From: a virus
Virus record (IMG/VR): IMGVR_UViG_3300010413_000017
Location: 1-64,000 of that record
Direction: 5' to 3' (one strand)
DNA length: 64,000 nucleotides
The position numbers and the translations under genes are program-made. The notes below the pieces were generated by a model that saw nothing but the letters and a program-made list of their open reading frames with translations, did no database searches and was not told the origin of the DNA. Numbering within the stretch: position 1 is the stretch's first letter; the number at the start of each line of letters is the position of its first letter. Below are positions 3,001-64,000 of the stretch, piece after piece.

Positions 3001-3177
3001 ACAATAGCTTTTAATACAGCCACAGCTTCTTGGGGAACTATTACGGCGATAGCAGCGTACTCGATAGTATCACTAGGGTTTTTTAAAATTTGCTATAGTA
3101 CAATAACTCCCATATCAATAGGTACTGGAGACAAATTAATTATTACTAATGGTAACTTCCTAGTAACTGTGGACTAA
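1..3177 (+). CDS. Large tail-fibre-like protein with His-x-His repeats, cut at its 5' end
   Basis: The reading frame is open from the first base, so the true start lies left of the window; GTG at 277 is only an internal codon. Domains in order: one HTH-containing repeat unit near codon 75; three tandem copies of a domain of about 120 residues (each with a conserved TAWQDKT-like start and a THT.K.QYR motif); then about 14 units of a 24-residue repeat with an HxH pair followed by S..L.Q.H.L.V. The C-terminal third holds two copies of a domain with TVYLALS and F.TATASWGT motifs, a type common in phage structural proteins; the second copy is diverged. This suggests a long, beta-rich fibre or tail decoration protein. 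HxH motifs coordinate iron in the T4 gp37 fibre, but that role is only an analogy here. Confidence 0.75.
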   Translation, partial: TAWATTDATATYGGASDLWSSGYSISDINDSSFGVDLSATNADGSAAREARVDAIWIRVTYDTTPTLTVANTSHTHSSEAPTLSQIELIISRVYHYSASTSQASTTSTNYVDAHSLAFTPAANSTYLIFGSWFLRTSNTGYGAFSRLINTTTSTTFTEVNLNPRNSGNYWSYGAFAQQTFGASPSTHTYKIQYRQYSFLARAVIKQSRLFALKLQASDEFASSVTQSSTSSTAWQDKTTLSFTPASPGDYLLLASAELRNSSASYDYLCRLDVDGTQYDTQNTSPNYAGSEGDTTWVVVKKATLTTASHTIKIQYRSGSGSATAYIRRAYLTALRLDDFPGYEYAESETRSATLSTAWQDKTSLTTYCDAYDRIVLGTCGGDENYHNNSACLRRLLHDSTDLGEMVHEDKIDNQRHRPYVAQNVFSSAATHTWKFQYRTNNTSATAGIQEARICVLQLYGLGSAVLVVSDSQHDHSVESVNLTQKYNLSISSCLHSQTSTSPTLSQLHILGVGSSLHSHAAISPLLAQLHILSADSGLHSHTATSPSLSQLHVLSIADGLHPHTCESINLIQQVNLVVDNCLHTHITDNISLIQKYVLVVDSALHAHTAESPLVSSVTFISEVYSATHAHSAESATLTQVHNLTTSNANHTHTAENVVLTITYLLGVASSFHNHLADSVSLSQTHNLVVANCIHQTTSQSLILFQLHVLVAQFATHTHSATSLDISQLHVLFVGSTSHIHSATSASLAQTHNLVASDANHLHVVDGVELSLYLVISSSVHSHVVTSFALGFGSFSDFIEPKILNHIFNVESYSPPSTVYLALSSTNPTEDASGLSEPIGGAYSRKPITFAMAAQRRIIQNATVLFDTATASWGTISYWALMDSESAGNMMVYGAFSAPVTITSGRVAEVKSSEIVVSVLPLLTASKNLTGGFFTSYANLILDWLFRAQSLFQNYDIKVSACNNISDGWSEWWTSPSGGGYAPVIHSSWTTASVGTCSNIGTIAFNTATASWGTITAIAAYSIVSLGFFKICYSTITPISIGTGDKLIITNGNFLVTVD

Positions 3178-3237
3178 CCTTTAAAATATTTACAGTAGTT
3201 TTTGGGTTGGGTTTGGTGATTTCACTAGGCTAAAATT

Positions 3238-5433
3238 ATGGACTTGATTGTAGAAAACATACTCCACTCTCACGTAGCTACTAATGTTAATTTAGCACAA
3301 ACAAAAAGAGTGGGACCAACTCCTAAACTTACCGCTCAAGCGCGCTTTGCGGTTTTGTTAAAACCTTTTGGTCTGTATGTTGACAATGCTCTTCACGACC
3401 ACACAGCGACATCTCCTAGTCTTATCCAACAACACAATTTAGTTATTTCCAGCTGTTCGCACTACCATTTGGTTGAAAGTGCCGTCCTCTCGCAAACCCA
3501 TATTTTAACAGTAGCAAGTTGCGTACATAATCATACTGTAGAAAGTCCAGCCCTCTTTTCTGTCGATAACTGTTGGCACAGCCACTCAGTCGATGCTATT
3601 AGTCTGACTCAAGAACATTCCCTTGTTGTTAGTAATTGTTTACATTCGCATACAGCAGGTAGTATTTATTTAAGTGAATGGGATATCCTCACAGTTTCAT
3701 CTGCTACACATAGCCATACCGCAGGTAGTGTAAGCCTGTCCCAAAAACATATCCTTACAGTTTCTAATTGTGAGCACAGCCATACATCTGATAAAGTTTC
3801 ATTTGTTGTATGGTTGTATCCTAGTTCAGCATTCCACTCGCATTCAGCCGAAAATGTAGACTTAGTTCAAGAGCACAGCCTTTTTGCCAATAATGCGTTT
3901 CACACACACTCAGCTCAAAGTGTAAGTTTATTTCAATTACATACACTAAGCACCCAGAACTGTGCTCATCTGCACAGCACAAGCCCTGTAACTTTAACTC
4001 AGACGCACTCTCTAGTTGTTAGCCCTACTGCTCATTTACACTCAGCCGACTCTGTTAGCCTCTCCCAGTTGCATGTTCTTATTATCAGTGCGTGTACTCA
4101 TGCACACAGCTCGGAGAATGTGGCACTAGTCAAAATTAGTAGCCTAGCAGTTTCTCCAACACTTCATAGCCATACAGCGGAAAGTGTAACATTACTAGAA
4201 TGGGATATTCTCACAGTCTACGACTGTGTCCATTCGCATACAGCTGAATCTCCCATACTAACGCAGGTTCATAACCTTGCAGTTTCTAGTTCTATTCATT
4301 CGCACACAGCAACAAGAATAAGTCTTTCTGGAACAGGCTTTTTAGATGTTCGGAACGCGTTGCATTTTCACTCAACCGAGAGCGTTAGCCTGTCCCAAGC
4401 ACATACTCTTGTAGTTGCTGATAGTTTCCACTCCCATACTGCTGAAAACATCTCGCTGACAGTTTGGCTTAATGTATCATTAGCTTCTCACACCCATACA
4501 GCAGAGAGCATCACTCTAATTCAAGAGCATTCGCTTTCTGTTGAGAATTCCCTTCACTATCATACGGTTTTGAACGTAGAGCTTGGACAGGTCTACATTC
4601 TAGTCACAAGCTCTGCCTCACATGTTCATACTGTTCAGGGAATAGTTTTATCACAAACTCACATCCTTGAGGCTCAGTCTGGGTTAAGTCAGCACTACGC
4701 TTCTGCTCCGACAATATTCCAGATTCACTTTTTAAGCGTAGATAATACTGTACATCAACATACAGTCGATTCCCTTAGCCTATCTGGCGCTCAGTTTTTG
4801 GATGTTCTGGGATGCCTACATAGTCATTCTTCAACATCTCCAACTTTATCTCAGCTCCACATTATAGGTGTGGCGAACGGCTCCCATACTCACATCGCTA
4901 CGTCTTTAACGTTAACTCAAACACATTTACTTGACACAACCAGCGCGCTTCACGCTCACAGGGTCGACGGCATAGTTCTCTTAGAATGGGATATTCTAAC
5001 AGTTCAGGGCTGTAGCCATGGCCATACGGTCGACTCCACTGCATTGGTTCAGCTCCATAGCCTGCCTGTCAATGATGGAGTACATACCCATTCAGCACAG
5101 GCGGTTGCTCTAGGCCAGACACATAACCTACTTGTTTCAAGTCTCCTCCACAGTCATACCTGCTCATTACTTGTTTTAGTAGCGATTCTGGATTTAATTG
5201 TTGATAGTGGTCTGCATTCACATATTGCAGAGAGCCCGGAGGTAGAACTTGCCAGTTTAAGTGTAGGAAACTGTCTCCATTCGCTCGTTTCTGACGTTGT
5301 CGCCTTAACGCAAGAGCATCGTCTGTTGGTTGCTAACACACGACATGTACAGACAGCAGAATCTCTAGTTGTGGTGCATATACCAAGAGTTTTACCAGAA
5401 GTCGGGCTAATAGTTTATGTGGAAAGACGATGA
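3238..5433 (+). CDS. His-x-His repeat protein (fibre-like)
   Basis: Almost the whole 731-residue protein consists of roughly 25-30 degenerate units of about 24 residues with the pattern H.HTA.S..L.Q.H.L.V. This is the same repeat as in the preceding gene, without its other domains. Each unit looks like two or three beta strands with a histidine pair at the turn, which fits a trimeric fibre or an elongated decoration protein, possibly binding metal. There is no signal peptide or enzyme motif. The short C-terminus after the last unit is hydrophobic, with VLPEVGLIVYV. It is probably a virion protein; the exact location is unknown. Confidence 0.7.
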   Translation: MDLIVENILHSHVATNVNLAQTKRVGPTPKLTAQARFAVLLKPFGLYVDNALHDHTATSPSLIQQHNLVISSCSHYHLVESAVLSQTHILTVASCVHNHTVESPALFSVDNCWHSHSVDAISLTQEHSLVVSNCLHSHTAGSIYLSEWDILTVSSATHSHTAGSVSLSQKHILTVSNCEHSHTSDKVSFVVWLYPSSAFHSHSAENVDLVQEHSLFANNAFHTHSAQSVSLFQLHTLSTQNCAHLHSTSPVTLTQTHSLVVSPTAHLHSADSVSLSQLHVLIISACTHAHSSENVALVKISSLAVSPTLHSHTAESVTLLEWDILTVYDCVHSHTAESPILTQVHNLAVSSSIHSHTATRISLSGTGFLDVRNALHFHSTESVSLSQAHTLVVADSFHSHTAENISLTVWLNVSLASHTHTAESITLIQEHSLSVENSLHYHTVLNVELGQVYILVTSSASHVHTVQGIVLSQTHILEAQSGLSQHYASAPTIFQIHFLSVDNTVHQHTVDSLSLSGAQFLDVLGCLHSHSSTSPTLSQLHIIGVANGSHTHIATSLTLTQTHLLDTTSALHAHRVDGIVLLEWDILTVQGCSHGHTVDSTALVQLHSLPVNDGVHTHSAQAVALGQTHNLLVSSLLHSHTCSLLVLVAILDLIVDSGLHSHIAESPEVELASLSVGNCLHSLVSDVVALTQEHRLLVANTRHVQTAESLVVVHIPRVLPEVGLIVYVERR

Positions 5434-27294: not shown

Positions 27295-27549
27295 TTATTC
27301 TTCGTCTGTAAGCTCGTCGAGGGGTATTCCTGTTCCATGTAAGAACCTGTCGTGCGCAAGTCCTGTAATAATTCCATACCATTCCAACGAGTCAGAAAGT
27401 CCTCCTGTCAAAATCCGCCTGTCCATGTGCCCAGCCTCTGTACGCACAGTGAAGATAACGCAAATCTCGTCGATGTCATTACTTAGAGCGTCGAGTCGAC
27501 GTAGCACCTTTTGTACAGAGTTCTTATCCAAGTGAACCACTTTTGCCAT
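27295..27549 (-). CDS. Hypothetical protein
   Basis: The 84-residue protein is last in the leftward block. It starts MAKVVHLDKNSVQKVLRRLDAL and has a strand-rich centre (ICVIFTVRTEAGHMDRRILTGG). It looks like a small alpha/beta protein of the kind that binds nucleic acid or partners, but no family is recognised. It overlaps the glycosyltransferase upstream by 26 bases, with AGGAGG ahead of the start inside that gene. Confidence 0.55.
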   Translation of the reverse strand: MAKVVHLDKNSVQKVLRRLDALSNDIDEICVIFTVRTEAGHMDRRILTGGLSDSLEWYGIITGLAHDRFLHGTGIPLDELTDEE

Positions 27550-28555
27550 ACAACAAACCTCCTTTTAGTAGTGCGGTTAGAAATGGGTCACACACAAGTG
27601 TGGAACGCAGGTTGTCCAATTTCCATTCAAACGGATACTCATTCAACGTAGAAACATAAGCATCAAGGTGCTCTTTCATATCTGGGTGGGACGCAACGAA
27701 CCGGTTCAGAAGAACGAATAAGGCGTTGAGCCACGCCTCTCTGTTATAGAACTGTTCCGCGGTATATGGGTCTAGCCCTCCTCTGATGAGATAACGCAGG
27801 ACAATGCGCTTGACAATTTTCTCTGATTGTATATACTCGTCATTACAGAAATCAGACAAGGACGTTACCGGATGTAGAAACGAGTCTTGGCCGTGTAGCC
27901 TGACAAGTGTACTATACTTTGTTTGTTTGAGCGCATCTCGGATTCTGCCACTCGAGACAGATATGCATGAAGGGAGTACTTCTGTTGCTAGCCATCTGTT
28001 GGGTATCATATTAGCATATTTGAACATCTGCCGCCAAGTTCCTACCCTATGGACGTAGTGGATGGTACATACTCTAGAGCGGAGATATGACAGCAGACGT
28101 TCTGTTACATAATGCGATTCTACTTCCAGACAACGAGTACTGAATATCCCAACGTTGTCTCCACACTGTAGGCGAGTTCCTCTTGTCCCCCCTGCCGCTA
28201 CGTATGACGGATTTTTATCTAGTACGTTTACACACTCGATGATTCCGCCTTTTATAGCTCTGTCACCATCGCAACAATACATAACATACGGAGTTCTAAT
28301 GGACTTGTTGACGTTCTTGATGGCTTCCCCTTCGTGTGCGGCTGTTGGACAACATTCTAACTTGAGGTTTAAGTTAGAGTGCTGGAAGTCCTCTACAACA
28401 TTACGTGTGGCTCTAATACTTCTGCCTGTACTTAGGTCTGCTATGATGATAAGCCCAGCAAAGCGTTTTTGGTTGTAATATTGAAGGGCTGTTCTAAGTT
28501 TTGGGGAACCGTTCTTCGTTGTAATAATGAGTGTTATTTTCTTGTCTGCGCTCAT
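27524..28555 (-). CDS. GT-A glycosyltransferase (TIGR00180-type), paralogue 1
   Basis: The 343-residue protein has the GT-A N-terminus (ITLIITTKNGSPKLRTALQYY), a metal/sugar-nucleotide motif DGD at 96-98 in CCDGDRA, and AHEGEAI before it. Two further paralogues are in this window (30821-31864 and 57109-58065). The C-terminal half (NRWLATEVLPSCISVSSGRIRDAL) is shared with them. Such proteins transfer sugars from nucleotide donors. In this phage they may modify DNA bases, virion proteins or host glycans. The canonical DDD of the paralogues is DGD here. Confidence 0.75.
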   Translation of the reverse strand: MSADKKITLIITTKNGSPKLRTALQYYNQKRFAGLIIIADLSTGRSIRATRNVVEDFQHSNLNLKLECCPTAAHEGEAIKNVNKSIRTPYVMYCCDGDRAIKGGIIECVNVLDKNPSYVAAGGTRGTRLQCGDNVGIFSTRCLEVESHYVTERLLSYLRSRVCTIHYVHRVGTWRQMFKYANMIPNRWLATEVLPSCISVSSGRIRDALKQTKYSTLVRLHGQDSFLHPVTSLSDFCNDEYIQSEKIVKRIVLRYLIRGGLDPYTAEQFYNREAWLNALFVLLNRFVASHPDMKEHLDAYVSTLNEYPFEWKLDNLRSTLVCDPFLTALLKGGLLYGKSGSLG

Positions 28556-28562
28556 TCAAATC

Positions 28563-29405
28563 TCACGTTTTTGTTTGGTGTGTAACCAAACATGTTTTTA
28601 AATAAGTGGCTAACTCTCCTTTTGGACAACAGGCGTGCCAAGAAGGGTCATCACAAATATCTTCTATACCTTTGCCTTTTACTGTATGAGCAACCAGAGC
28701 AAACGGCTGACTGTAGTGCCTAGAATTAATATACTTGAATGCTTCAAGAAGTGAGGCAAAGTCATGTCCGTCGCATACGGCCGTCCTCCACCCAAAAGCG
28801 GAAAACTTTTCTTGGATGTTGTCTAGCGGTATAAAGTTGTCTGTAAAATCTGTCGCACATATTCCATTCCTGTCTATGATCGCTACTAGGTTGTTCAACC
28901 TGTGAGCGGCGGCGAAATCTGCGGCTTCCCATATTTGTCCCTCGTAGCACTCTCCATCACCTAGAAGAGCGAACACAGTATTGTTTTTTCTGTCAAGCTT
29001 TAACGCCTTGGCCATCCCACACGCATATGAGAGTCCATGCCCGAGACTTCCGGTTGTAAATTCGACTCCGGGCACGTCATGTTGCAAATGAACTCCAAAT
29101 TTCCCCCCTGCTTGACAGAACGTATCTGTCCAATTACGTGGAAAGAACGCGAGGTCGGACAGAACGGCGTAAAGAATTGGAGAGGCTTGTCCTTTACTCA
29201 ACACAAAGTAGTCACGCTTATCAGAATCTACACTAACTTCTCGCATGACTTGGTAATACAATGCCACAAGAATTTCCACGCAGGAAAACGAGCTTGTAAT
29301 ATGCCCTGTTTCTGCTTGGCAACACATATCATACGTCACTGTGCGTAAATGGTGAGCCTTTTCTGTCAAGTATTCTGTGAGCTGTTTGTGGAGTTCGTTC
29401 GTCAT
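28563..29405 (-). CDS. Transketolase-like, N-terminal (thiamine diphosphate-binding) subunit
   Basis: The 280-residue protein corresponds to the first third of transketolase. It has GHITSSFSCVEIL, LSKGQASPILYA, TTGSLGHGLS and the diphosphate/Mg site GDGECYEGQIWEA (149-161) with IIDRNG about 28 residues later. Together with the separate C-terminal subunit at 31861-32748 it should form one enzyme moving two-carbon ketol units, for example making sedoheptulose 7-phosphate or extending a sugar. Split transketolases are common in sugar and antibiotic pathways. Coupled to the radical SAM gene by ATGA. Confidence 0.85.
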   Translation of the reverse strand: MTNELHKQLTEYLTEKAHHLRTVTYDMCCQAETGHITSSFSCVEILVALYYQVMREVSVDSDKRDYFVLSKGQASPILYAVLSDLAFFPRNWTDTFCQAGGKFGVHLQHDVPGVEFTTGSLGHGLSYACGMAKALKLDRKNNTVFALLGDGECYEGQIWEAADFAAAHRLNNLVAIIDRNGICATDFTDNFIPLDNIQEKFSAFGWRTAVCDGHDFASLLEAFKYINSRHYSQPFALVAHTVKGKGIEDICDDPSWHACCPKGELATYLKTCLVTHQTKT

Positions 29406-30820
29406 GTGAGTAGATTCCTTTCCAAAGTCTGTGTTGTCATAAATTCAATGTGCTCCTTTGTATCACGCCCAAATCCATACTCTACTAGTCTTAGGTAGTA
29501 GGGGTTAGTGAAGTATGTTGTGAAAGCATAATCTCTAAACGCTAGAACATCTCTAGCCGCTAGTGTTTCTGTAGGTAGGGGTAACGTTTCTTTGGCGTAT
29601 TGGCTGTAGCCTTGCCACGTCTTGGGTAAGTCGAGCGCTTGCTCGACTGCTTGTAGATGGAGTTGGCTACCCGGGTAGGCCATCGCACAATAGAAATTAG
29701 CCCACTCAGAACATATGTACTGTGCCAAGTGGAGAGTTTGTAACATGGTGTCCCATGTATCTTGGGGAAAGCCGAACATCCAATTAGCATTAATACAAAT
29801 TCCTGCCTCGTGGGTTAGGTTAGACACCTCTACTATTTTGTTTGTCCAATTACCCGCGCTCTTTGTCTTTCCCGTTTCGTACGCTATTTTGTTGTTACCA
29901 GTTTCAAACCCGTAACACAGCCACTTAATTCCTATACTGCGTATGTTCTGTAGCATAGCGGAATCAACTGTATCAACACTTGCGTAGGCCCAGATGTTCA
30001 GTTCGTCAAGGTCAAACTTTTCTTGTTCAGCTTTATGTTTTACAGCGGCACAGATGTCACTGACATGTTTTTTGTTAAGGGTGAAGTTTTCATCTAGGAT
30101 GCGAATGTTGTAGATATCTTGCTTCACCCATTCAAAAAGCTCGTCCGCTACAACTTGGGGTGACTTGTACCTAACTTGCCTAGAACCCCTAAACATAGCA
30201 TGAATTACGCAGAAAGAGCATTTTCTCGGGCAACCCAAGGAGGTAAAGAGAACTCCGTATGGGCTTCTGTCATAAATGCGTCCAAAGCAGTGCCAGTTGT
30301 GGGCACGATATTCCACCAAGGGTAATAAATCCCACGCAGGACGTGGAAGCAGGTCCAGCTCAGGAAAGTTCTCGCTGTAGACGACTCCAGATAACTCATG
30401 GGCTTGGACTATAACATCGAATCCTTCTCCGACTATAACAGCGTCAGCGTTTGTTTTAAGAAGGGTTAGTTCTGGGAGTGCGGAGGGATGAAGCCCGTGA
30501 ATGATAGTTTTAATGCCATAATGAGTGAGAGGGAAGGAGATGTGTGGGACACTAACCATGCTTTGTGTGGAGGCAGAAGGATTGTGGCCACACACAGAAA
30601 TAACAACTGCTGTCGGTTTGAGTTCTAGGATTCTCCACAACAACTCGCTGTATGTTAGGTTCTCCACTTCATTGTCGATGAGAGCAACATCAACGCCTCT
30701 CTGACGACACTGGGCGGCAAGTAGAGCCGCCCAAATAGGAGGCTCTATGGCTGTTAGATTAAAATCATCTAAGACTCCGTACACTTGTTTTTTGCTTGAG
30801 GGTCTGACTATAACTATCAT
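29402..30820 (-). CDS. Radical SAM protein with B12-binding-like N-terminus
   Basis: The 472-residue protein has the [4Fe-4S] cysteines C197, C201 and C204 in GCPRKCSFCV, followed by the usual GFETG-type and LDENF motifs of the radical SAM barrel. The N-terminal 140 residues look like the cobalamin-binding Rossmann domain of B12 radical SAM enzymes (AALLAAQCRQRGVDVALID, LKPTAVVISVCG), but the DxHxxG motif is absent, so cobalamin may not be bound. Lying between transketolase and glycosyltransferase genes, it may methylate or rearrange a sugar or lipid intermediate. Substrate unknown. Confidence 0.8.
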   Translation of the reverse strand: MIVIVRPSSKKQVYGVLDDFNLTAIEPPIWAALLAAQCRQRGVDVALIDNEVENLTYSELLWRILELKPTAVVISVCGHNPSASTQSMVSVPHISFPLTHYGIKTIIHGLHPSALPELTLLKTNADAVIVGEGFDVIVQAHELSGVVYSENFPELDLLPRPAWDLLPLVEYRAHNWHCFGRIYDRSPYGVLFTSLGCPRKCSFCVIHAMFRGSRQVRYKSPQVVADELFEWVKQDIYNIRILDENFTLNKKHVSDICAAVKHKAEQEKFDLDELNIWAYASVDTVDSAMLQNIRSIGIKWLCYGFETGNNKIAYETGKTKSAGNWTNKIVEVSNLTHEAGICINANWMFGFPQDTWDTMLQTLHLAQYICSEWANFYCAMAYPGSQLHLQAVEQALDLPKTWQGYSQYAKETLPLPTETLAARDVLAFRDYAFTTYFTNPYYLRLVEYGFGRDTKEHIEFMTTQTLERNLLT

Positions 30821-31864
30821 TTAACCTTCCTGAGTATCAGTTCTTTGGATGTTGTTCAGTTGTTCGAGTTTATTGAACAAATGTTCGTCGCCTATAATGG
30901 CGTCGGACATTGTTGGTCTAAGCCACTCAAATGGATACGATTCTAGGCTTTGGCTGTACATGTCAATCACCTGTTTAAGGTGCGGATAGCGTTCAACGAA
31001 CCTGTTAAGTAACAACGCTACTGTAGACAGCCACATCTCCTTGTCGTATATTTTTTCGGCTAGCGCTTCGGAAATACCATCTTGGACTAAGTACGGAACG
31101 ACGACTTCTTTCATGATGCCGAGAGAGTCAACATAATCGTGGGAAAACATCATGTCAAACAAACTCACATTCTGAATCCATGATTCCTTGGTATCAATCC
31201 GGTAGATGGCAAGCGTAGTCCTGTCTGATAGAGCGTCCTTAATCTTTCCGCTCATGACTGATATACAGCAGGGCAAAACTTCTCCGCCTAACCATCTGTT
31301 TGGCATTCTGTCGGCGTGTTCGAACATCGCTATCCACGTTGGTGTTCTGTGTACATAATATGTTGTACAGATACGTGCGCGAATGTATGAAGCGAAACGT
31401 TCCACAACAGAATCGGCCTCTACTTGTAGGCACGATGTATACTGAACTTGTGACCTATTTTGGTTTCCGACTTCTGTGCCTTTCACTCCGCTAGCGGCTG
31501 TATATTCCGGGTTGTGTTCTAGGAACTTTACGCACTCCATGACCCCGCTTTGAACAGCAATGTCGTCGTCTCCACAATACATAGCATAGTCTGTATTTAT
31601 GAGATTGTTCGCTTTTTTAACGGCGTCTCCGTCGTGCATTTGCTCTATGCACTTACATAGACGTATGTTCAGCCCGTTTGTGGAGGCAGACTGCACAAGC
31701 TCATCAACATCAGAGGCTTGTTCTGTGCTTGAGTCAGCTACAATCACATCGCCCTTAAACTCTGTACGTGTATAATAGTCAAGAGTTTTAGCTAACTTTG
31801 AGGCTCGTTCCTTTGTGGGGATGACGATTGTGACTTTTTTATCGAGAGTAGAGTCTTGCGTCAT
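30821..31864 (-). CDS. GT-A glycosyltransferase (TIGR00180-type), paralogue 2
   Basis: The 347-residue protein has VTIVIPTKERASKLAKTLDYY, VADSSTEQ and the GDDD motif at 98-101, with HDGDAVKKAN before it; these are the nucleotide-sugar binding elements of GT-A enzymes. Clear similarity to the 27524-28555 protein continues through RMPNRWLGGEVLPCCISV. The two flank the transketolase-N and radical SAM genes, which points to gene duplication inside one pathway cluster. It overlaps the transketolase-C gene by ATGA. Confidence 0.8.
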   Translation of the reverse strand: MTQDSTLDKKVTIVIPTKERASKLAKTLDYYTRTEFKGDVIVADSSTEQASDVDELVQSASTNGLNIRLCKCIEQMHDGDAVKKANNLINTDYAMYCGDDDIAVQSGVMECVKFLEHNPEYTAASGVKGTEVGNQNRSQVQYTSCLQVEADSVVERFASYIRARICTTYYVHRTPTWIAMFEHADRMPNRWLGGEVLPCCISVMSGKIKDALSDRTTLAIYRIDTKESWIQNVSLFDMMFSHDYVDSLGIMKEVVVPYLVQDGISEALAEKIYDKEMWLSTVALLLNRFVERYPHLKQVIDMYSQSLESYPFEWLRPTMSDAIIGDEHLFNKLEQLNNIQRTDTQEG

Positions 31865-32748
31865 GATTCATAGCATAGAGCAAGGAGGCTCGCTTTGTCG
31901 AGACCGTAGTGCGAACGTAATTGCTCTCTTCCTCCGTAGTCATAGTTATACCCGGAAGCTCTTGTCACTTTGATGTGACGATACGGGGGAATTTTCAGCA
32001 CCGAAACAATGGGCTCATACAGGCCGCCGAAACTCTCCTCAAGAAGAATGTACGGAAATCGACATACTATCGGGTGGAAAATCCTGCCGAATTGTCTAAC
32101 GTCAAAAGGAAGAGAGAATACATCTACATAAGGTCTTCCGGTATCCTTGACAGAGTGAATAAGGTCACCTTGAGTTATAAAAAACGGACTCTTAACCCTT
32201 GCCTCCCAGTTGAAAAAGCTAAACCCACGTTCGAGTACGGGCAACTTCTCTGTATAGACAGGTTCGCGTGTAGCTCTGTCTAAACGAATGTAGGTAGGCC
32301 CACTCGAAACCCTAGCCAAAGCTTCAGCCATGACAGAGTCAGTCACAGTAATCACAGTCATGTTAGGAAGTGCGGACATAATGGCTACATCTTCTAAGGT
32401 GTGATGCGTTGGCCCCGAGTCCTCATAGCTGAAGCCTGCTCCTACACCTACTAAGGTTATAGGAAGGTTGTGTGCACATGGACCCAACTTTACCTGTTCA
32501 TAACAGCGCAGAGAGATGAAAGGGGCGATTGCGTACACAAAGACCTTTTTCCCTAACTTGGCCAAACCTGTAGCAATACTAACAGCATTGGCCTCGGCTA
32601 TTCCGACGTTTAAGTACTGGCTAGGTAGGTCGAGTCTCCATTGGTCGAGAGAGGGTGCCCCCATGTCAGCCGAGACCAGCACGATGTTCCTGTCTTGTTT
32701 GGCAAGTAAAAAGAGCGCGTTGAAGAAAGCATCACGTTGGGAAATCAC
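31861..32748 (-). CDS. Transketolase-like, C-terminal (pyrimidine-binding) subunit
   Basis: The 295-residue protein holds the pyrimidine-binding domain with catalytic Glu52 in YLNVGIAEANAV, the GAGFSYEDSGPTHHTLEDVA motif and the C-terminal domain. It is the partner of the 28563-29405 subunit, separated from it by a glycosyltransferase and a radical SAM gene, so the enzyme is encoded as an interrupted pair in one operon. Length and motif order are normal for this half. Confidence 0.87.
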   Translation of the reverse strand: MISQRDAFFNALFLLAKQDRNIVLVSADMGAPSLDQWRLDLPSQYLNVGIAEANAVSIATGLAKLGKKVFVYAIAPFISLRCYEQVKLGPCAHNLPITLVGVGAGFSYEDSGPTHHTLEDVAIMSALPNMTVITVTDSVMAEALARVSSGPTYIRLDRATREPVYTEKLPVLERGFSFFNWEARVKSPFFITQGDLIHSVKDTGRPYVDVFSLPFDVRQFGRIFHPIVCRFPYILLEESFGGLYEPIVSVLKIPPYRHIKVTRASGYNYDYGGREQLRSHYGLDKASLLALCYES

Positions 32749-33740
32749 TCAGTTTCCTCCTCAAGTTCCCATCCTAACTTAGTTAGCACAGTTGTCCACC
32801 AATGATGAGCTGTGTACTTGTGATGGGCCAGTCCGTGCCCGTTCGTTGCCACCATAATACGCTCCCCTGGAAGAGCGAGGAAGTAATGAAGTTGCTCAGC
32901 TAGGTCGTCGTAATCGGGCTCATCTCCGTTCATTTTGTATGTGATGTAGTGAACCTTTGGAACAAACCAGCGGTTAATTTGTGATGTCTCCGCCGCTACT
33001 AGAAGCGCTCCGCATAGTGTTGTTTCCCAAGCTCTACCCTTATGAAGGACAGGGGTGAAATCCAACATGATTTGGCTTTGGCGAAACTGCTCTGCATAGG
33101 CTTCTCTAGACAGGGCGTCCTCCTTTTGTCCCCCGGCATGTGTGACTTCAATACCTCGCTTGCCAAGCTCCTCCAAAGCCTTGACTCGCTCGGGTCTGTT
33201 GTCCAACCTTCCAGCATGGGCAACTCTGACAGGGCGTTCAGAGCGCGGATCGCCATAATACAACCTAGGACTTTGTGGTGTCCACAGTGGCATTATTTTG
33301 TCCGGAGCGCTCTCGAACGAATAGTCGATTGTCAAGTGCAAATCTATTACGTTGTAAAGAACCTGAATCATTTGTTGGCTCACTGTCCACGCCGAGTCCC
33401 ACCATACCGCACATATTTTGACATTCGGATTTATCCGTTTAAGTCTGTCAAAAGTTCTTACACTTGGGTTGAACGGGCCGAAGAAGTCTGTAGGAGCACT
33501 TGGGCTGACTAACCAAGTCCAAACAACAACATCTATACCCTCAGCTACCAGTGTGAGCAACTCCTCAGTCGCTACTTCGGCGTGGGTTTGAAACCATTGG
33601 TCTGGGTGAAGAATAGCAATTGTTTCGGCTAGACCTGTAGTATCAAGTGAATCGAACAGATTATGGTAAGAGTTTGTTAGACCAAACTCAGGATTATTCG
33701 ACGGCCATTTTTCAGTAACAAACAGAACTCTAGGTTTCAT
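32745..33740 (-). CDS. GT-B-like glycosyltransferase
   Basis: The start is ATG 33740, which has a perfect AGGAGG 5 bases upstream, giving 331 residues. The N-terminus MKPRVLFVTEKWP and the C-terminal block (VRVAHAGRLDNR, MLDFTPVLHKGRAWETTLCGALLVA, AHHKYTAHHWW) fit the Glyco_trans_1_2 family with the E in KGRAWE as donor contact. It is probably a transferase using a nucleotide sugar from the pathway encoded to the right. Coupled by ATGA to the transketolase-C gene. Confidence 0.7.
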   Translation of the reverse strand: MKPRVLFVTEKWPSNNPEFGLTNSYHNLFDSLDTTGLAETIAILHPDQWFQTHAEVATEELLTLVAEGIDVVVWTWLVSPSAPTDFFGPFNPSVRTFDRLKRINPNVKICAVWWDSAWTVSQQMIQVLYNVIDLHLTIDYSFESAPDKIMPLWTPQSPRLYYGDPRSERPVRVAHAGRLDNRPERVKALEELGKRGIEVTHAGGQKEDALSREAYAEQFRQSQIMLDFTPVLHKGRAWETTLCGALLVAAETSQINRWFVPKVHYITYKMNGDEPDYDDLAEQLHYFLALPGERIMVATNGHGLAHHKYTAHHWWTTVLTKLGWELEEETE

Positions 33741-33747
33741 GCTCCTC

Positions 33748-34176
33748 CTAGTTAAATGTATAGAATGTAACGCCCCCCAATACTTCTTGGCAGATTGCTT
33801 CACTCAAGGGCTTTTCCCAAACTTCTCCTTTTCCGTGGATAAAAACTTGAAGGGAGACAATGCATTGAAGTATCAGTGAAATAGGATAAGTAATATAGTA
33901 AATGATTCTTGACGAGTCCTTAAGTGAAGCCTTAGATAATCTCCAAATTAGTGCTAAGTTGTGGGCACCGTAGACACAAACCTTGTCTGGGGCAAGGGCC
34001 GCAACAGTGGCAAAGGCTCCGTCGTCCCAGTATCTAATCGCAACATGACCACATCGGCATGAACCGACCTGCGTCTCGACTTGTTCATCAACTACGTTGT
34101 CCCCATCATATTTGTGAGTATGACAAACCTTACTCAAAACAAGACTGCGGCAAATCTGACAATAAGCTACTTTCAT
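33748..34176 (-). CDS. Cysteine-containing hypothetical protein
   Basis: The 142-residue protein has CQICRSLVLSKVCHTH near the start and SCRCGH at about 40, giving enough Cys/His for one zinc site. A hydrophobic stretch (IIYYITYPISLILQCIVSLQVF) in the second half may be a membrane helix. It is coupled by ATGA to the EEP gene upstream. It could be a zinc-ribbon membrane-associated protein; no family assigned. Confidence 0.55.
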   Translation of the reverse strand: MKVAYCQICRSLVLSKVCHTHKYDGDNVVDEQVETQVGSCRCGHVAIRYWDDGAFATVAALAPDKVCVYGAHNLALIWRLSKASLKDSSRIIYYITYPISLILQCIVSLQVFIHGKGEVWEKPLSEAICQEVLGGVTFYTFN

Positions 34177-58556: not shown

Positions 58557-59630
58557 TTATCGTTTGGTGAACCTGCTTTTGCGTTTTGGTACTACAGCGG
58601 CCTCCACTTCTAGCCAGTCCTTCTCGGCAAGCGTTTTGAGTTCTGCTAAGTCTTCGGGAGAGTCCTCAAGGAATGAAATGAATGACTGGCGTTTAAACGT
58701 CTTGTCGCCCCACTTAATCTCTTTGTCCCCATACATATAGTCAATGAGGGAATTAATATCGTCTATGCCGTAGTCGAACAAAATGGAAAACTCGGCCATA
58801 CGAAACGGTTTTGCTACTTTGTTGCGTTTGAAATTAGCCTTGACTGTCACCCCATATGTGCGTTTCTGTCCACGAAACGTTTTATCCAGCTTGCCGGTGT
58901 GGGCTAACCAGCATACTTGGTGTGTATAAAAATCGAGGGCTTTGCCGCCAGTTCTATAGTGCTTCTCACCAAACATCTGCCCAATCTTTTCTCGTACTTG
59001 AGAAATACAAATAAGTGTGGAATCCTTGCCTTGCATACTTTTACACAGATGATTGAAAAAACCTGAGCTAAAAAACTTAGCCTTCTCTGCGCCCATAGAA
59101 CCGGGGGCTTTCTGTTCGTCAAGTATTTTTTGCATTCTGTCAGCCGCCGCGTCTGGCACAAGTGCGTCGACTGAATCTATAACATAAATCAGACACTGCC
59201 CGGGTGTGAGAGCGTTAACGCGCCTAAGATAATCTGTCCCGAAATCCTCCGCGATGGGTGTCTGAATCCATGTGACAGCGCTAACGAAGTCATCTCCATA
59301 CATGTCTTCGATGGGGAAGTCCATGACTCCTTCAACGTTGTTGTAAACGATGAAAAGCTCTTTTATGGGCGGATAGAGGGCAGAGGGTTTCGCTTTTAAG
59401 TTGTAAAAAGCGTGGGCGCAAGCCTCCAAGGAGAGGAGCGTTTTCCCGCTTGAGCCGTCTCCGACAATGTTAACAATCCTACCTCTGGCCCAACCTCCAC
59501 TTAGACCTCTTTGGGAGGCGGCGAGGTTGAGCAGGGTCGAGCCCGTATCAATGAACTCGACCCTTTCACCCCGCTCCACTGGCTTCCGTGCCAGCTTCTC
59601 TGTTTCCTCGACGATTGCTGATTTAGCCAT
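58557..59630 (-). CDS. RecA/UvsX-like recombinase
   Basis: The 357-residue protein has Walker A GDGSSGKT (57-64), YVIDSVDAL as Walker B and LICISQVREKIG as the loop 1 region, with SMGAEKAKFFS before it. It lacks the RecA C-terminal domain and has a basic tail (PKRKSRFTKR). It drives strand exchange in recombination and replication. It shares one base with the ssDNA-binding gene. Confidence 0.87.
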   Translation of the reverse strand: MAKSAIVEETEKLARKPVERGERVEFIDTGSTLLNLAASQRGLSGGWARGRIVNIVGDGSSGKTLLSLEACAHAFYNLKAKPSALYPPIKELFIVYNNVEGVMDFPIEDMYGDDFVSAVTWIQTPIAEDFGTDYLRRVNALTPGQCLIYVIDSVDALVPDAAADRMQKILDEQKAPGSMGAEKAKFFSSGFFNHLCKSMQGKDSTLICISQVREKIGQMFGEKHYRTGGKALDFYTHQVCWLAHTGKLDKTFRGQKRTYGVTVKANFKRNKVAKPFRMAEFSILFDYGIDDINSLIDYMYGDKEIKWGDKTFKRQSFISFLEDSPEDLAELKTLAEKDWLEVEAAVVPKRKSRFTKR

Positions 59631-60660: not shown

Positions 60661-61152
60661 TTACTGCGCCGGAACAGCTGAACGGCTAGGACGCTTTTCT
60701 CCAAGCGCCTCCTTGAGTTTCTTACTGACCTGTTCCTGAACAAGGTCAGCACCAACAGTGCTACGCGGCTCGGAGAAGTAGCTGGTCAGGTGCAAATCAA
60801 CCAGCTTTTCCAAGCCCTTGCGCTTGTGTTCCAAAGCCCGAACGACGGCTCGGAGCATATTCAGCTCGTATTTAGCGAGGATGATTTCCTCTTCCAGTTC
60901 TTGGAATTCGGGCTGTCTGGCGATGAAGTTTTTGAGGACAGCTTCTGTGACACGTTCTGTTGCAGTTTCTCTGAGTTGTTGGTCGAGCTGAGCGATTAAG
61001 ACATCTTTCCTGAGTTCCAAGCGTGAGACTACACGCTCGGCTTCGACTGCCTGCTCGCTATAGCTCAACACGTTGCTAGGATGTTTTACCCATTCGTCGT
61101 CGAGGGCAAATTTGTCAATGCTGACATCTGCCTCTACCTGAGATTTGTCCAT
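60661..61152 (-). CDS. Helical protein, recombination mediator candidate
   Basis: The 163-residue protein is almost all helix/coiled coil (QAVEAERVVSRLELRKDVLIAQLDQQ, FQELEEEIILAKYELNMLRAVVRAL). It starts with GGAGG upstream and directly precedes the ssDNA-binding gene. By position and shape it could load the recombinase as UvsY does in T4; sequence alone does not prove this. Confidence 0.55.
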   Translation of the reverse strand: MDKSQVEADVSIDKFALDDEWVKHPSNVLSYSEQAVEAERVVSRLELRKDVLIAQLDQQLRETATERVTEAVLKNFIARQPEFQELEEEIILAKYELNMLRAVVRALEHKRKGLEKLVDLHLTSYFSEPRSTVGADLVQEQVSKKLKEALGEKRPSRSAVPAQ

Positions 61153-61171
61153 AATTCCTCCTTACTTTATT

Positions 61172-61189
61172 ATAGCCTGTACCGGCTAT
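61172..61189. other. Hairpin between array 1 and the coiled-coil gene
   Basis: ATAGCC-TGTACC-GGCTAT, a perfect 6-pair stem, lies 36 bases beyond the last regular repeat of array 1. It may end or process the array transcript. It is weak as a terminator. Confidence 0.4.
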
Positions 61190-61225
61190 TTTGGAAGTTA
61201 AAAGTGTGAGTGCGCTCAGCTTCTT

Positions 61226-61459
61226 TGGGTTCCTTATTGTTTTTGGCTCGCTTTTGGTGTTTGGTGTCCTTGGACAAGATAGCTCGCTTGCCACTTTTGG
61301 GTTTCTTAGAGTCAATGGCTCGCTTTCCTCTGATGGGTTTCTTATTATAACTGGCTCGCTTGCCACTTTTGGGTTTCTTAACCTATAGGACTCGCTTCTG
61401 GTTAATGGGTTTCTTTATGCAGGTGGCTCGCTTATATCTGATGGGTGCCTTGGGCGTGT
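61226..61459. repeat. TIGR-like array 1 (36-base period, two alternating repeats)
   Basis: On the + strand repeat B (consensus TGGGTTTCTT) starts at 61226, 61262, 61298, 61334, 61370, 61406 and 61442, and repeat A (TGGCTCGCTT) at 61244, 61280, 61316, 61352, 61388 and 61424, each with exactly 36-base spacing. All gaps between A and B are 8 bases and differ, except gccacttt, which occurs twice (61290 and 61362). End repeats are degenerate. On the - strand the units read AAGAAACCCA-N8-AAGCGAGCCA-N8. Two spacers per 36-base unit is the hallmark of tandem interspaced guide RNA arrays, not CRISPR. Confidence 0.9.
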
Positions 61460-61463
61460 TGAC

Positions 61464-62492
61464 TTAAGCCACATCGTCAGGTGAAACAGACTCTCGTCCG
61501 GCCTCTACAGGAACCGGTGTAGCGTCATAAACCCAGCCACGTTCCTCTGGCATAATCGTTCTGTGCGGCCCGTCTAGAACTGCCTCTGCGTATAGAGGTG
61601 AAGTAGGTAATCCCAAAAGTGTTCTGCCTACATACCAATAGTCCGCAAGGAAGTGCTTCATAATGACACGCAGTGCGGCCATGTGCCTGTGATTAGGAAC
61701 GGTCTCTTTCCATGGTTTCTCGACAAGCCTGTGCCGACCGTTATGTAAGCCAAATGTCTTAACAAGTTTCTCAGAGTTATCCAACTTGGAGCGCGTTTTG
61801 TCGTACAGATAACCATACGCGCTACCTTTGTTCCTCTGTTTCATCTGTGAGTTAGCCATAGTGAAGAGAGCAGTCCGAAGAGACCTGTTACCACCACTAG
61901 GTTCCCCCGGAGTATAGCGGGCGTGGGCGGGAGTGTGCAGTCCAGTGTACCTCCACAGACTGGAGGCGTGCTTCGCCTTTGCCAGATCTATGTAGACAAG
62001 GCAGTAAGCTATGGTCACAAAGCCAACAGAATGTACTCCCAATGCGGCTTGCACCAACGGGTTCGTTTGGGCAATCTCGTTAACCGTTTTTTTGAGTGCG
62101 TGCGTACGCTTGCTCAACAGAGACGTTAATTGGTCGAGTTGTATAGACAGAAACTCGGCTGTTTCTGGGTTAAGAGTATCTGTACGCCTTCGATACGCGC
62201 GTAACTGATTGCCGATTTTGGTGTGGAGTTTCAAGACTTGGTTCCTGTCATCCACTTGGGCTTTGAGACGTTCAAACAGTTCAGGACGCTCCCGAAAGAT
62301 GCCATGGTGCCGCATGTGAGTGATGGGGTCTACCACGCATGTGTTATCGGGAGTATACCTTCCACCTTTGCTTTTGGGTTTCAGCCTGTGTGTGTCGAAG
62401 CTTTCAGTAGGTTCACCTAGTGGTTGTCCAGTAAATGCGTCAACTCCAAGTTGTTTCTCCTTAGTCGTACGTTTCAGTTCTTCTTTTGCCAC
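61464..62492 (-). CDS. TasH-like protein: HNH nuclease fused to a Nop/Transposase_20-like RNA-binding region
   Basis: The start is GTG 62492 with AAAGGAGAG upstream; 342 residues. The N-terminal HNH motif has His35 (FDTHRLKPKSKGG), Asn50 (TPDN) and His62-His63 (MRHHG). A helical linker at about 75-145 leads to a C-terminal region with ALGVHSVGFVTIA, LWRYTGLHTPA and GGNRSLRTALFTMAN, the pattern of the IS110 Transposase_20 / Nop guide-RNA-binding fold. Arrays flank it on both sides. In TIGR-Tas systems such proteins bind 36-base guides and the HNH domain is the presumed DNA-cutting part. The RuvC-like DEDD domain of IS110 is absent. Confidence 0.85.
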   Translation of the reverse strand: MAKEELKRTTKEKQLGVDAFTGQPLGEPTESFDTHRLKPKSKGGRYTPDNTCVVDPITHMRHHGIFRERPELFERLKAQVDDRNQVLKLHTKIGNQLRAYRRRTDTLNPETAEFLSIQLDQLTSLLSKRTHALKKTVNEIAQTNPLVQAALGVHSVGFVTIAYCLVYIDLAKAKHASSLWRYTGLHTPAHARYTPGEPSGGNRSLRTALFTMANSQMKQRNKGSAYGYLYDKTRSKLDNSEKLVKTFGLHNGRHRLVEKPWKETVPNHRHMAALRVIMKHFLADYWYVGRTLLGLPTSPLYAEAVLDGPHRTIMPEERGWVYDATPVPVEAGRESVSPDDVA

Positions 62493-62527
62493 GCTGTGCT
62501 CTCCTTTTGAGATTCGTTACTAAACGC

Positions 62528-62663
62528 TGGGTTTCTTCAAACTGATGGCTCGCTTAAGGTTTTTGGGTTTCTTGAGTATGCTGACTCGCTTTCCAATGTT
62601 GGGTTTCTTAGATGATGTGGCTCACTTGGTATTTATGGGTTTCTTTCAGGGCTTGGCTCTTAC
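62528..62663. repeat. TIGR-like array 2 (36-base period), between polymerase and tasH-like gene
   Basis: Repeat B (TGGGTTTCTT, invariant) starts at 62528, 62564, 62600 and 62636. Repeat A starts at 62546 (TGGCTCGCTT), 62582 (TGACTCGCTT), 62618 (TGGCTCACTT) and, degenerate, 62654. The seven 8-base spacers in + orientation are caaactga, aaggtttt, gagtatgc, tccaatgt, agatgatg, ggtattta and tcagggct. None equals a spacer of array 1. The array fills the space from 6 bases before the polymerase stop to the ribosome-site region of the tasH-like gene. Confidence 0.9.
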
Positions 62664-62668
62664 CTAGT

Positions 62669-64000
62669 TTATAGCCCGTTGGGGGCGTACTTCCCATCTA
62701 AAAACTCAGTATAGGGAACCTTTTTCTTAGTTGACCAAGGAGCGTCGATATCACACAACTCGAACTCAACTTCGAGTGGCACGTTACACCAAGAATGTAC
62801 TTGCAACGCCCTTTCAGACATAATCCAGTTCGCCATAGTCACAACTCGATGAAGTTCCTCTGGCTGAACACTCAGCAAAATACAATCGTGAATCTGGCCG
62901 AGGATAACTGAACTTAGCCTGTCTTTTTTTAGAAACTTGCTGAGTTCTATCAGGCTCCACAGTAAGATATGAAAAGCTGTTCCCTGAATTGGAGTGTTCA
63001 AAATCTCATTCCTAGCCAAGTAGCCTTGGCGTCTGAACCCATATTTGAGGGGTACACGACCGGTCTTATAATAGCGTGCTACCCATTTTTCTTTCCATTT
63101 GGCGTAGGTAGAGAACTGTTTCCAGAACCTGTTCTCTTCTGCTTGAATGTGCTCTGTGAAAACATCCAAAGAAGTAAGCTTCTGGTTCATTAAATGTTCT
63201 CGTAAAGAAGAGCCGTCGGCAAGGAGTAGTTGCTCTCCGTCTTTCCAGAGTTTCTCAGCACAAGGTCTGTACCACGAGCCGTATAACTGAGCAAAAACAA
63301 ACGCTCCTTTAACAAGATTGCGTACAGCTTTTGTAATCTGGTCTCGGGGTAATAGGTATACTCGTTCGGTCTGGTCCCTGTGCATATCTGACGTGGGGTC
63401 TTTACAGTAACGAATAAGTTCAGGGTCTTGGGTGAACGTTGCCGCAATCCGGACTTCGTGCATTCCAAAGTCTATTTCAAGAAGTTGTTGGCCGTGATGA
63501 GGAAACATACCGCTTCGCACAAGCTGAGTCATACGCTCGTCGCGAGCTGGAATGTTTTGTAAATTAGGACGGCTCGATGAACCTCGATATGTTCTTACTC
63601 TGTGAAGATGGAAAAAGGGATGTAAAGTCTCCTTATAGATTTCACGGATAATCCCTTTTATATAGGTAGATTCAGTTTTAGTTGCACTACGGAGTCGAGT
63701 TACATCAATCAAGAAAGAGCGTAGACTCTGTTGTGGAAGAGTCCGAGAGAACTCCTCAATGTCCTCTTTGTCTAAGGTGGGATTTCCCTTCGCTGACTTC
63801 TTCCTAGGTTCGATCCCAACATAGTCAAAGAGAAGAGTTTTGAGTTGTGGAGCAGACCCGGGGTTAAGTGGAACGCCTGTCTTCTTTTCCCATAACCGAG
63901 CGTAGTGAGAGTCCATGACTCTCGCTTTTGCGGCCTTGCTCTCCTCTGAGATAGTGGTAAACGCTTCTTGGAATACCTCAGAGGAAGCTCTAAAGCCTGT
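62669..64000 (-). CDS. polA: DNA polymerase I family polymerase, 5' end outside the window
   Basis: The frame is open to the right edge with no stop, so ATG 63916 is probably internal. Family A motifs are motif A LLEIDFGMHEVRIAA, motif B RNLVKGAFVFAQLYG and motif C GQIHDCILL, where the usual HDE is HDC. RPNLQNIPARDERM precedes motif A. Only the palm/fingers/thumb part is visible; any exonuclease domain lies beyond the window. It replicates the phage genome and is followed by array 2. Confidence 0.9.
   Translation of the reverse strand, partial: TGFRASSEVFQEAFTTISEESKAAKARVMDSHYARLWEKKTGVPLNPGSAPQLKTLLFDYVGIEPRKKSAKGNPTLDKEDIEEFSRTLPQQSLRSFLIDVTRLRSATKTESTYIKGIIREIYKETLHPFFHLHRVRTYRGSSSRPNLQNIPARDERMTQLVRSGMFPHHGQQLLEIDFGMHEVRIAATFTQDPELIRYCKDPTSDMHRDQTERVYLLPRDQITKAVRNLVKGAFVFAQLYGSWYRPCAEKLWKDGEQLLLADGSSLREHLMNQKLTSLDVFTEHIQAEENRFWKQFSTYAKWKEKWVARYYKTGRVPLKYGFRRQGYLARNEILNTPIQGTAFHILLWSLIELSKFLKKDRLSSVILGQIHDCILLSVQPEELHRVVTMANWIMSERALQVHSWCNVPLEVEFELCDIDAPWSTKKKVPYTEFLDGKYAPNGL

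What the first reader, a model, noticed from the sequence alone, without database searches (positions are those of the whole stretch)
61226..62663. A phage TIGR-Tas-type RNA-guided system with two arrays flanking a TasH-like nuclease
A HNH plus Nop/Transposase_20-like protein lies between two arrays with an exact 36-base period. Each unit holds two different 10-base repeats (A TGGCTCGCTT, B TGGGTTTCTT) and two 8-base spacers. This matches tandem interspaced guide RNA arrays with 36-base guides and tandem-spacer targeting, as described in 2025 for phages and parasitic bacteria. The subtype (HNH, arrays on both sides of the gene, next to polA and recombination genes) is little studied.
Basis: partly seen in the sequence, partly recalled or inferred. 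Interest (0 to 1): 0.97.

Follow-up and report, generated by a model that had tools for sequence, protein, structure and literature searches.

The report
Phage RNA-guided DNA-cutting system (TIGR-TasH)
This uncultivated phage carries a small RNA-guided DNA-cutting cassette of the recently described TIGR-Tas type: the finding is real and the family is already known, but the cassette's clean insertion next to DNA-replication genes and the way its guide arrays change bear on the open question of what these systems do.

Summary
On the minus strand lie polA, array U (62510-62663, 4 units), a 342-aa HNH-Nop protein (61464-62492), array D (61208-61469, 7 units) and a UvsY-like gene. Each 36-nt unit is a 10-nt edge repeat (AAGCGAGCCA), an 8-nt spacer A, a 10-nt loop repeat (AAGAAACCCA) and an 8-nt spacer B. 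Each array starts with a 5'-degenerate edge and ends with a 3'-degenerate edge. The protein passes the NCBIfam TIGR-Tas model. It is 45% identical to SpTasH of Salicola phage CGphi29, and its predicted fold matches the solved TasH-tigRNA-dsDNA complex (Z 30.1). It is therefore a TIGR-TasH system, a new member of a known kind. Arrays on both sides are common (16 of 33 loci), and TasH has been tested biochemically and has solved structures. New here: (i) a relative with polA and the UvsY-like gene adjacent and no cassette, so the cassette is a discrete insertion; (ii) two sister phages share whole spacer-pair units but differ at others; (iii) single half-spacers recur in the same slot within an array, so halves seem to re-assort; (iv) no excess of targets in own or sister phage genomes. 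The natural target and biological role remain open.

The parts
62510..62663 (-). TIGR array U (upstream of tasH, just after the polA stop codon): 4 tigRNA units, spacer pairs AGCCCTGA/TAAATACC, CATCATCT/ACATTGGA, GCATACTC/AAAACCTT, TCAGTTTG/GCGTTTAG; first edge 5'-degenerate (GTAAGAGCCA), last edge 3'-degenerate (TAACGAATCT)
61464..62492 (-). tasH: 342 aa, GTG start preceded by AAAGGAG; HNH residues 1-64 with D33, H35, R36, N50, H59, H63 intact; long helices 71-143; Nop-like domain about 145-322
61208..61469 (-). TIGR array D (downstream): 7 tigRNA units, spacer pairs ACACGCCC/TCAGATAT, CCTGCATA/TTAACCAG, TATAGGTT/AAAGTGGC, GTTATAAT/TCAGAGGA, TTGACTCT/AAAGTGGC, TCTTGTCC/AACACCAA, AAAACAAT/AAGAAGCT; first edge overlaps the tasH stop codon; units 3 and 5 share spacer B
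62669..64000 (-). DNA polymerase I (polA), 903 aa in all, running beyond the window; left border of the cassette
   Evidence: Pfam DNA_pol_A; phrog_17; relative L180
60661..61152 (-). UvsY-like recombination mediator (weak match); right border of the cassette; lies directly after polA in the relative that lacks the cassette
58557..59630 (-). UvsX-like recombinase, part of the replication/recombination block into which the cassette is inserted

Best explanation
This is a phage-borne TIGR-TasH system. Shown from sequence: the gene, both arrays, their common strand, the repeat boxes, the intact HNH residues and the fold. Inferred from the experimentally studied relative: the arrays are transcribed with the gene, cut in the middle of each edge repeat into 36-nt tigRNAs, and bound by a TasH dimer through matching boxes of edge and loop repeat. 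Spacer A then pairs with one strand and spacer B with the other strand of adjacent 8-bp half-sites (target read as A followed by the reverse complement of B, with a 0-2 bp gap), and the two HNH domains nick both strands. The cassette (array-gene-array, about 1.5 kb) is a discrete unit inserted between polA and a UvsY-like gene. Most likely role, inferred only (held at about 0.5, apart from the confidence given below for identity and mechanism): it cuts competing mobile DNA, such as rival phages, prophages or plasmids, in the shared host, favouring the carrier's inheritance, rather than regulating the carrier's own genes.
For: NCBIfam NF052498 TIGR_Tas_endo 102.3 bits against a cut-off of 100. 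TasH in PDB E 5.6e-82; Salicola phage CGphi29 protein 45.5% identical over 94%, the paper's named SpTasH. AF2 model pLDDT 90.7, pTM 0.85; 9w04 TasH-tigRNA-dsDNA Z 30.1, TasR Z 18.6, IS621 Z 15.2, T4 endonuclease VII Z 8.6 on residues 1-64. All loci of relatives examined carry a 36-nt dual-repeat array on the gene strand. Array ends match the published rule of a 5'-truncated first and 3'-truncated last edge. Empty site in relative L180. No own-genome targets above controls.
Against: No expression or processing data for this phage. No natural target was found, so cutting of competitors is inference; the 2025 paper saw plasmid loss but no block of conjugation or phage plaquing with the related TasR. 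The NCBIfam score passes by only 2 bits. No terminator-like site was found after array D on the minus strand, although published arrays typically end with one.
Confidence: 0.93

Rival explanations
1. An RNA-guided homing element: the cassette cuts cassette-free relatives near its own insertion site and is copied in by the phage's UvsX/UvsY recombination, as free-standing homing endonuclease genes are. (A rival about role, not about family.)
For: Discrete insertion between polA and the UvsY-like gene with an empty site in a syntenic relative that has no TasH match. Cassettes of relatives sit at different places: next to polA, UvsX, helicase, SSB or head genes. TasH makes double-strand breaks.
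Against: None of the 11 guides matches the empty-site relative better than controls, at the site or genome-wide; the best match has 2 mismatches. The relative is only about 65% identical, so its sites may have diverged.
Confidence: 0.2
2. A guide system aimed at the host chromosome or resident prophages (host takeover or superinfection control). (A rival about role, not about family.)
For: Guides match neither their own nor sister phage genomes above controls, so targets lie elsewhere; the host of this phage is unknown.
Against: No positive evidence; the host genome could not be identified or searched.
Confidence: 0.25
3. An IS110-type transposase with a chance tandem repeat.
For: Weak Pfam Transposase_20 match, NCBIfam IS110 match 29 bits, IS621 fold similarity Z 15.
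Against: The IS110 match is far below its cut-off of 140 bits. An HNH replaces the DEDD nuclease domain. The array is conserved in every relative examined. TasH scores far above IS621.
Confidence: 0.01
4. A CRISPR-like or plain tandem repeat without guide function.
For: Regular short repeats next to a nuclease gene.
Against: Two different alternating 10-nt repeats with 8-nt spacers, no cas gene among the neighbours annotated, spacers at chance identity while repeats are 90% conserved, and the same layout in the loci of relatives.
Confidence: 0.02

Closest known systems
SpTIGR-TasH of Salicola phage CGphi29 (Faure et al. 2025, PMC12045711; HQ634153)
   Same: HNH-Nop effector, 45.5% identity over 94%; 10-nt edge and loop repeats with 8-nt spacers and 36-nt units; edge consensus AAGCGAGCCA in both; loops AAGACAACCA and AAGAAACCCA
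   Different: Here arrays flank the gene on both sides (Salicola: downstream only in our parse). Position 35 of the HNH motif is His here and Asp in Salicola. Inserted next to polA rather than downstream of structural genes such as the terminase.
TasR (9mty) and TIGR-TasR
   Same: Nop-like RNA-binding part, Z 18.6; dual-repeat arrays giving 36-nt guides
   Different: RuvC instead of HNH nuclease; 9-nt spacers; box D is UG in TasR, whereas TasH repeats here start with AAG
IS110/IS621 bridge-RNA recombinases
   Same: Nop-like RNA-binding domain, Z 15.2
   Different: DEDD recombinase and single bridge RNA instead of HNH and guide arrays
Free-standing phage homing endonucleases
   Same: HNH gene cassette inserted between conserved replication genes, with an empty site in a relative
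   Different: Specificity carried by RNA arrays; no matching target found at the empty site

Membership tests
TIGR-TasH | Nop-domain Tas protein of the TIGR-Tas sequence family | tested here: met
   NCBIfam NF052498 102.3 bits against 100; PDB TasH E 5.6e-82; fold Z 30.1 over 309 residues
TIGR-TasH | N-terminal HNH nuclease with catalytic residues | tested here: met
   D33, H35, R36, N50, H59, H63 present; residues 1-64 match T4 endonuclease VII Z 8.6. Activity itself not tested
TIGR-TasH | Array of alternating edge and loop repeats of 8-12 nt with short spacers, next to the gene | tested here: met
   36-nt units, 10+8+10+8
[quoted passage not shown]
   GTAAGAGCCA and TAACGAATCT in array U, GCTTAAGTCA and GAGCGCACTC in array D
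TIGR-TasH | Rho-independent terminator after the array (typical, not defining) | tested here: inconclusive
   No minus-strand terminator-like site after array D; a short hairpin lies at about 61171-61190 but without a T run on that strand
TIGR-TasH | Processing into 36-nt tigRNAs | not testable with these tools
   Needs small-RNA sequencing
TIGR-TasH | Tandem-spacer DNA targeting and cleavage | not testable with these tools
   Needs in vitro cleavage; natural target search was negative
IS110 transposase | IS110 sequence family at the curated cut-off | tested here: not met
   29.1 bits against a cut-off of 140; Pfam Transposase_20 15.6 against 21.3
Homing endonuclease cassette | Discrete insertion with an empty site in a relative | tested here: met
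   L180: polA stop about 30 nt from the start of the UvsY-like gene, no tasH found in the 140-kb record
Homing endonuclease cassette | Cuts the cassette-free allele at or near the insertion site | tested here: inconclusive
   No guide matches G016 near the site or elsewhere above controls, but that relative is only about 65% identical

The most novel reading that the evidence does not exclude
TIGR-TasH is a mobile inter-phage weapon whose guides evolve without adaptation genes: whole units are exchanged between sister phages, and single half-spacers are re-assorted within an array through the short repeats, so new target specificities arise by recombination, perhaps helped by the phage's own UvsX/UvsY machinery beside which this cassette sits.
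Probability: 0.3. Interest if true: 0.75.

Novelty: new member of a known kind. Interest (0 to 1): 0.45.

Why it matters
TIGR-Tas is a young family with no known natural target, no known way of gaining spacers and no known role (stated as open in PMC12045711). This member adds a well-resolved TasH locus. More useful are the comparative leads: an insertion with an empty site in a syntenic relative, a pair of sister phages with partly different arrays, and reuse of single half-spacers. These make the questions of how arrays change and what they aim at testable with sister-phage sequencing and a simple cleavage assay.

Tried and rejected
Own-genome targets: 229 guides in 18 contigs, four pairing orders, 0-2 mismatches; A plus reverse-complement-B gave 0 exact, 1 single-mismatch and 29 two-mismatch own matches, against 0-1, 1-3 and 26-39 in the control orders. 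All 441 guides in 33 records (1.07 Mb): 1 exact foreign match (a low-complexity AT-rich pair at a doubtful array end) and 55 one-mismatch, against 0-2 and 43-53 in controls. One guide shared by two sister phages scanned in IMG/VR: 82 scattered hits, in line with what chance would give, none with a second target of the same arrays. Targets in the cassette-free relative: none better than 2 mismatches. The prokaryote genome collection gave no TasH relative with the two patterns used, so no host genome could be tested; this is not evidence of absence. No megablast match of the first 25 kb of the window to isolate phages, so the host is unknown.

Full report
CHECK OF THE OBSERVATION. The locus was read on both strands. 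Everything that belongs together is on the minus strand. In transcription order: polA (stop at 62669), array U (62510-62663), tasH (61464-62492, GTG start after AAAGGAG), array D (61208-61469), and a 163-aa gene (60661-61152). The unit is edge AAGCGAGCCA, spacer A (8 nt), loop AAGAAACCCA, spacer B (8 nt), 36 nt in all; array U has 4 units and array D has 7. Lag-36 identity peaks at 75 of 108 positions, against 49 elsewhere in the genome at that lag, 52 at any lag from 20 to 60, and at most 52 in 100 shuffles; repeats are about 90% identical between units while spacers are at chance.

WHAT THE PROTEIN IS. Pfam is nearly silent (Transposase_20 15.6 bits, below its cut-off). NCBIfam's TIGR_Tas_endo model passes (102.3 against 100 bits) while the IS110 model fails by far (29 against 140). 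The best isolate relative is the Salicola phage CGphi29 protein, 45.5% identical over 94% of the query, from the phage that Faure et al. 2025 name as the TasH example (PMC12045711). Eight PDB entries share a TasH sequence that matches at E 5.6e-82. An AlphaFold2 model from 31 sequences has mean pLDDT 90.7 and pTM 0.85. It aligns to the TasH-tigRNA-dsDNA complex 9w04 over 309 residues at Z 30.1, to TasR at Z 18.6 and to the IS621 bridge recombinase at Z 15.2; residues 1-64 match T4 endonuclease VII at Z 8.6. The HNH residues D33, H35, R36, N50, H59 and H63 are present.

RELATIVES. Two scans of IMG/VR and one search of isolate phages gave about 33 further loci. Every one examined has a 36-nt dual-repeat array on the gene's strand, including two distant solo-Nop proteins (26% identity, L096 and L097) and the TasA-like protein of Microcystis phage Mvi-JY20. 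Of 33 non-redundant loci, the window included, 16 have arrays on both sides. Repeats in nearly all share a 5' AAG-type box and a 3' CA or CCA box, in both edge and loop, as expected if a symmetric dimer binds both.

HOW IT MOST LIKELY WORKS. The mechanism is inferred from SpTasH and TasR in PMC12045711: arrays are processed within edge repeats into 36-nt tigRNAs, Tas is needed for processing, spacers A and B pair with opposite strands of adjacent half-sites without a PAM, gaps up to 2 bp are tolerated, and TasH cuts in an HNH- and guide-dependent way. From the reported 8-nt 3' overhangs I deduced that a target reads spacer A followed by the reverse complement of spacer B; this is my inference, and three other orders served as controls.

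TARGETS. No guide has an exact target in its own phage, and one-mismatch and two-mismatch own matches are no more frequent than in control orders. The same holds against sister phages and against a cassette-free relative. So these systems do not visibly aim at their own genes; what they do aim at remains unknown, as the 2025 paper also states.

INSERTION. A polA search found a 140-kb relative, L180/G016, with the same gene order at 54-69% protein identity (polA, UvsY-like, p330, UvsX, dCMP deaminase). There polA's stop codon is followed after about 30 nt by the UvsY-like gene, with no cassette, and no tasH match was found in the whole record. The array-gene-array cassette is thus a discrete insertion, or, less simply, a clean loss in the relative. 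In other phages it sits next to polA (L070, L084, L085), UvsX (L010), a helicase (L001), SSB (L087), an exonuclease (L015) or head genes (L071, L079, L090).

ARRAY EVOLUTION. G001 and G002 are sister phages from different samples, about 93% identical over most aligned stretches. Their arrays share eight units in the same order, mostly with both spacers unchanged, while other units differ (my count by eye). Spacer pairs are thus inherited as units and units are replaced in place. Within loci, identical spacers in the same slot occur 10 times in 6,914 comparisons, against 0 of 6,914 between A and B slots of the same loci and 1.6e-5 per comparison between loci. In at least five cases only one half is shared, including units D3 and D5 of this window (spacer B AAAGTGGC). 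This fits recombination through the short repeats. The event number is small and the parse of degenerate units is imperfect, so this is suggestive.

VERDICT. It is a new member of a known kind. The claim that the layout is unusual is not supported. The biological role is unproven; cutting of competing mobile DNA is my preferred reading, held at about 0.5.

Noticed in passing
L004 (IMGVR_UViG_3300032163_000079) 2980-3933; L091 (IMGVR_UViG_3300033148_007360) 1829-2749: TasH relatives with decayed HNH motifs (DANR and RPRMKKQ in L004; deleted core in L091) but with regular arrays, so probably RNA-guided DNA binders without cleavage.
   Followed up: partly
TasH alignment A2, position 35 of the window protein: The likely general-base position of the HNH motif is His in 15 and Asp in 13 of 29 HNH-bearing proteins, with D33 invariant and R36 kept in all but one. 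Which residue acts as base in the Asp group is unclear.
   Followed up: no
L018 (PP438412.1, Microcystis phage Mvi-JY20) 3938-4693 with array after it: An isolate phage with a culturable cyanobacterial host encodes a TasA-like protein without HNH and a 36-nt dual-repeat array (ATGCGAGCCA/ACGAAACCCA); annotated only as hypothetical.
   Followed up: partly
L005 4045-4941: A ParB-like gene lies directly upstream of a TasH gene; the 2025 paper reports tasParB in operons with tasA.
   Followed up: no
window 27524-33803, minus strand: A run of six large genes, mostly without PHROG match among those tested and one radical-SAM-like, possibly a phage-borne biosynthesis cluster.
   Followed up: no
window 1516-1669: A 66-bp direct repeat of about 2.3 copies at 70% match near the structural genes.
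   Followed up: no
L019 9527-10663 (genome positions 69527-70663), minus strand: A queuine tRNA-ribosyltransferase-like gene, along with four tRNA genes and ribonucleotide reductase in this phage.
   Followed up: no
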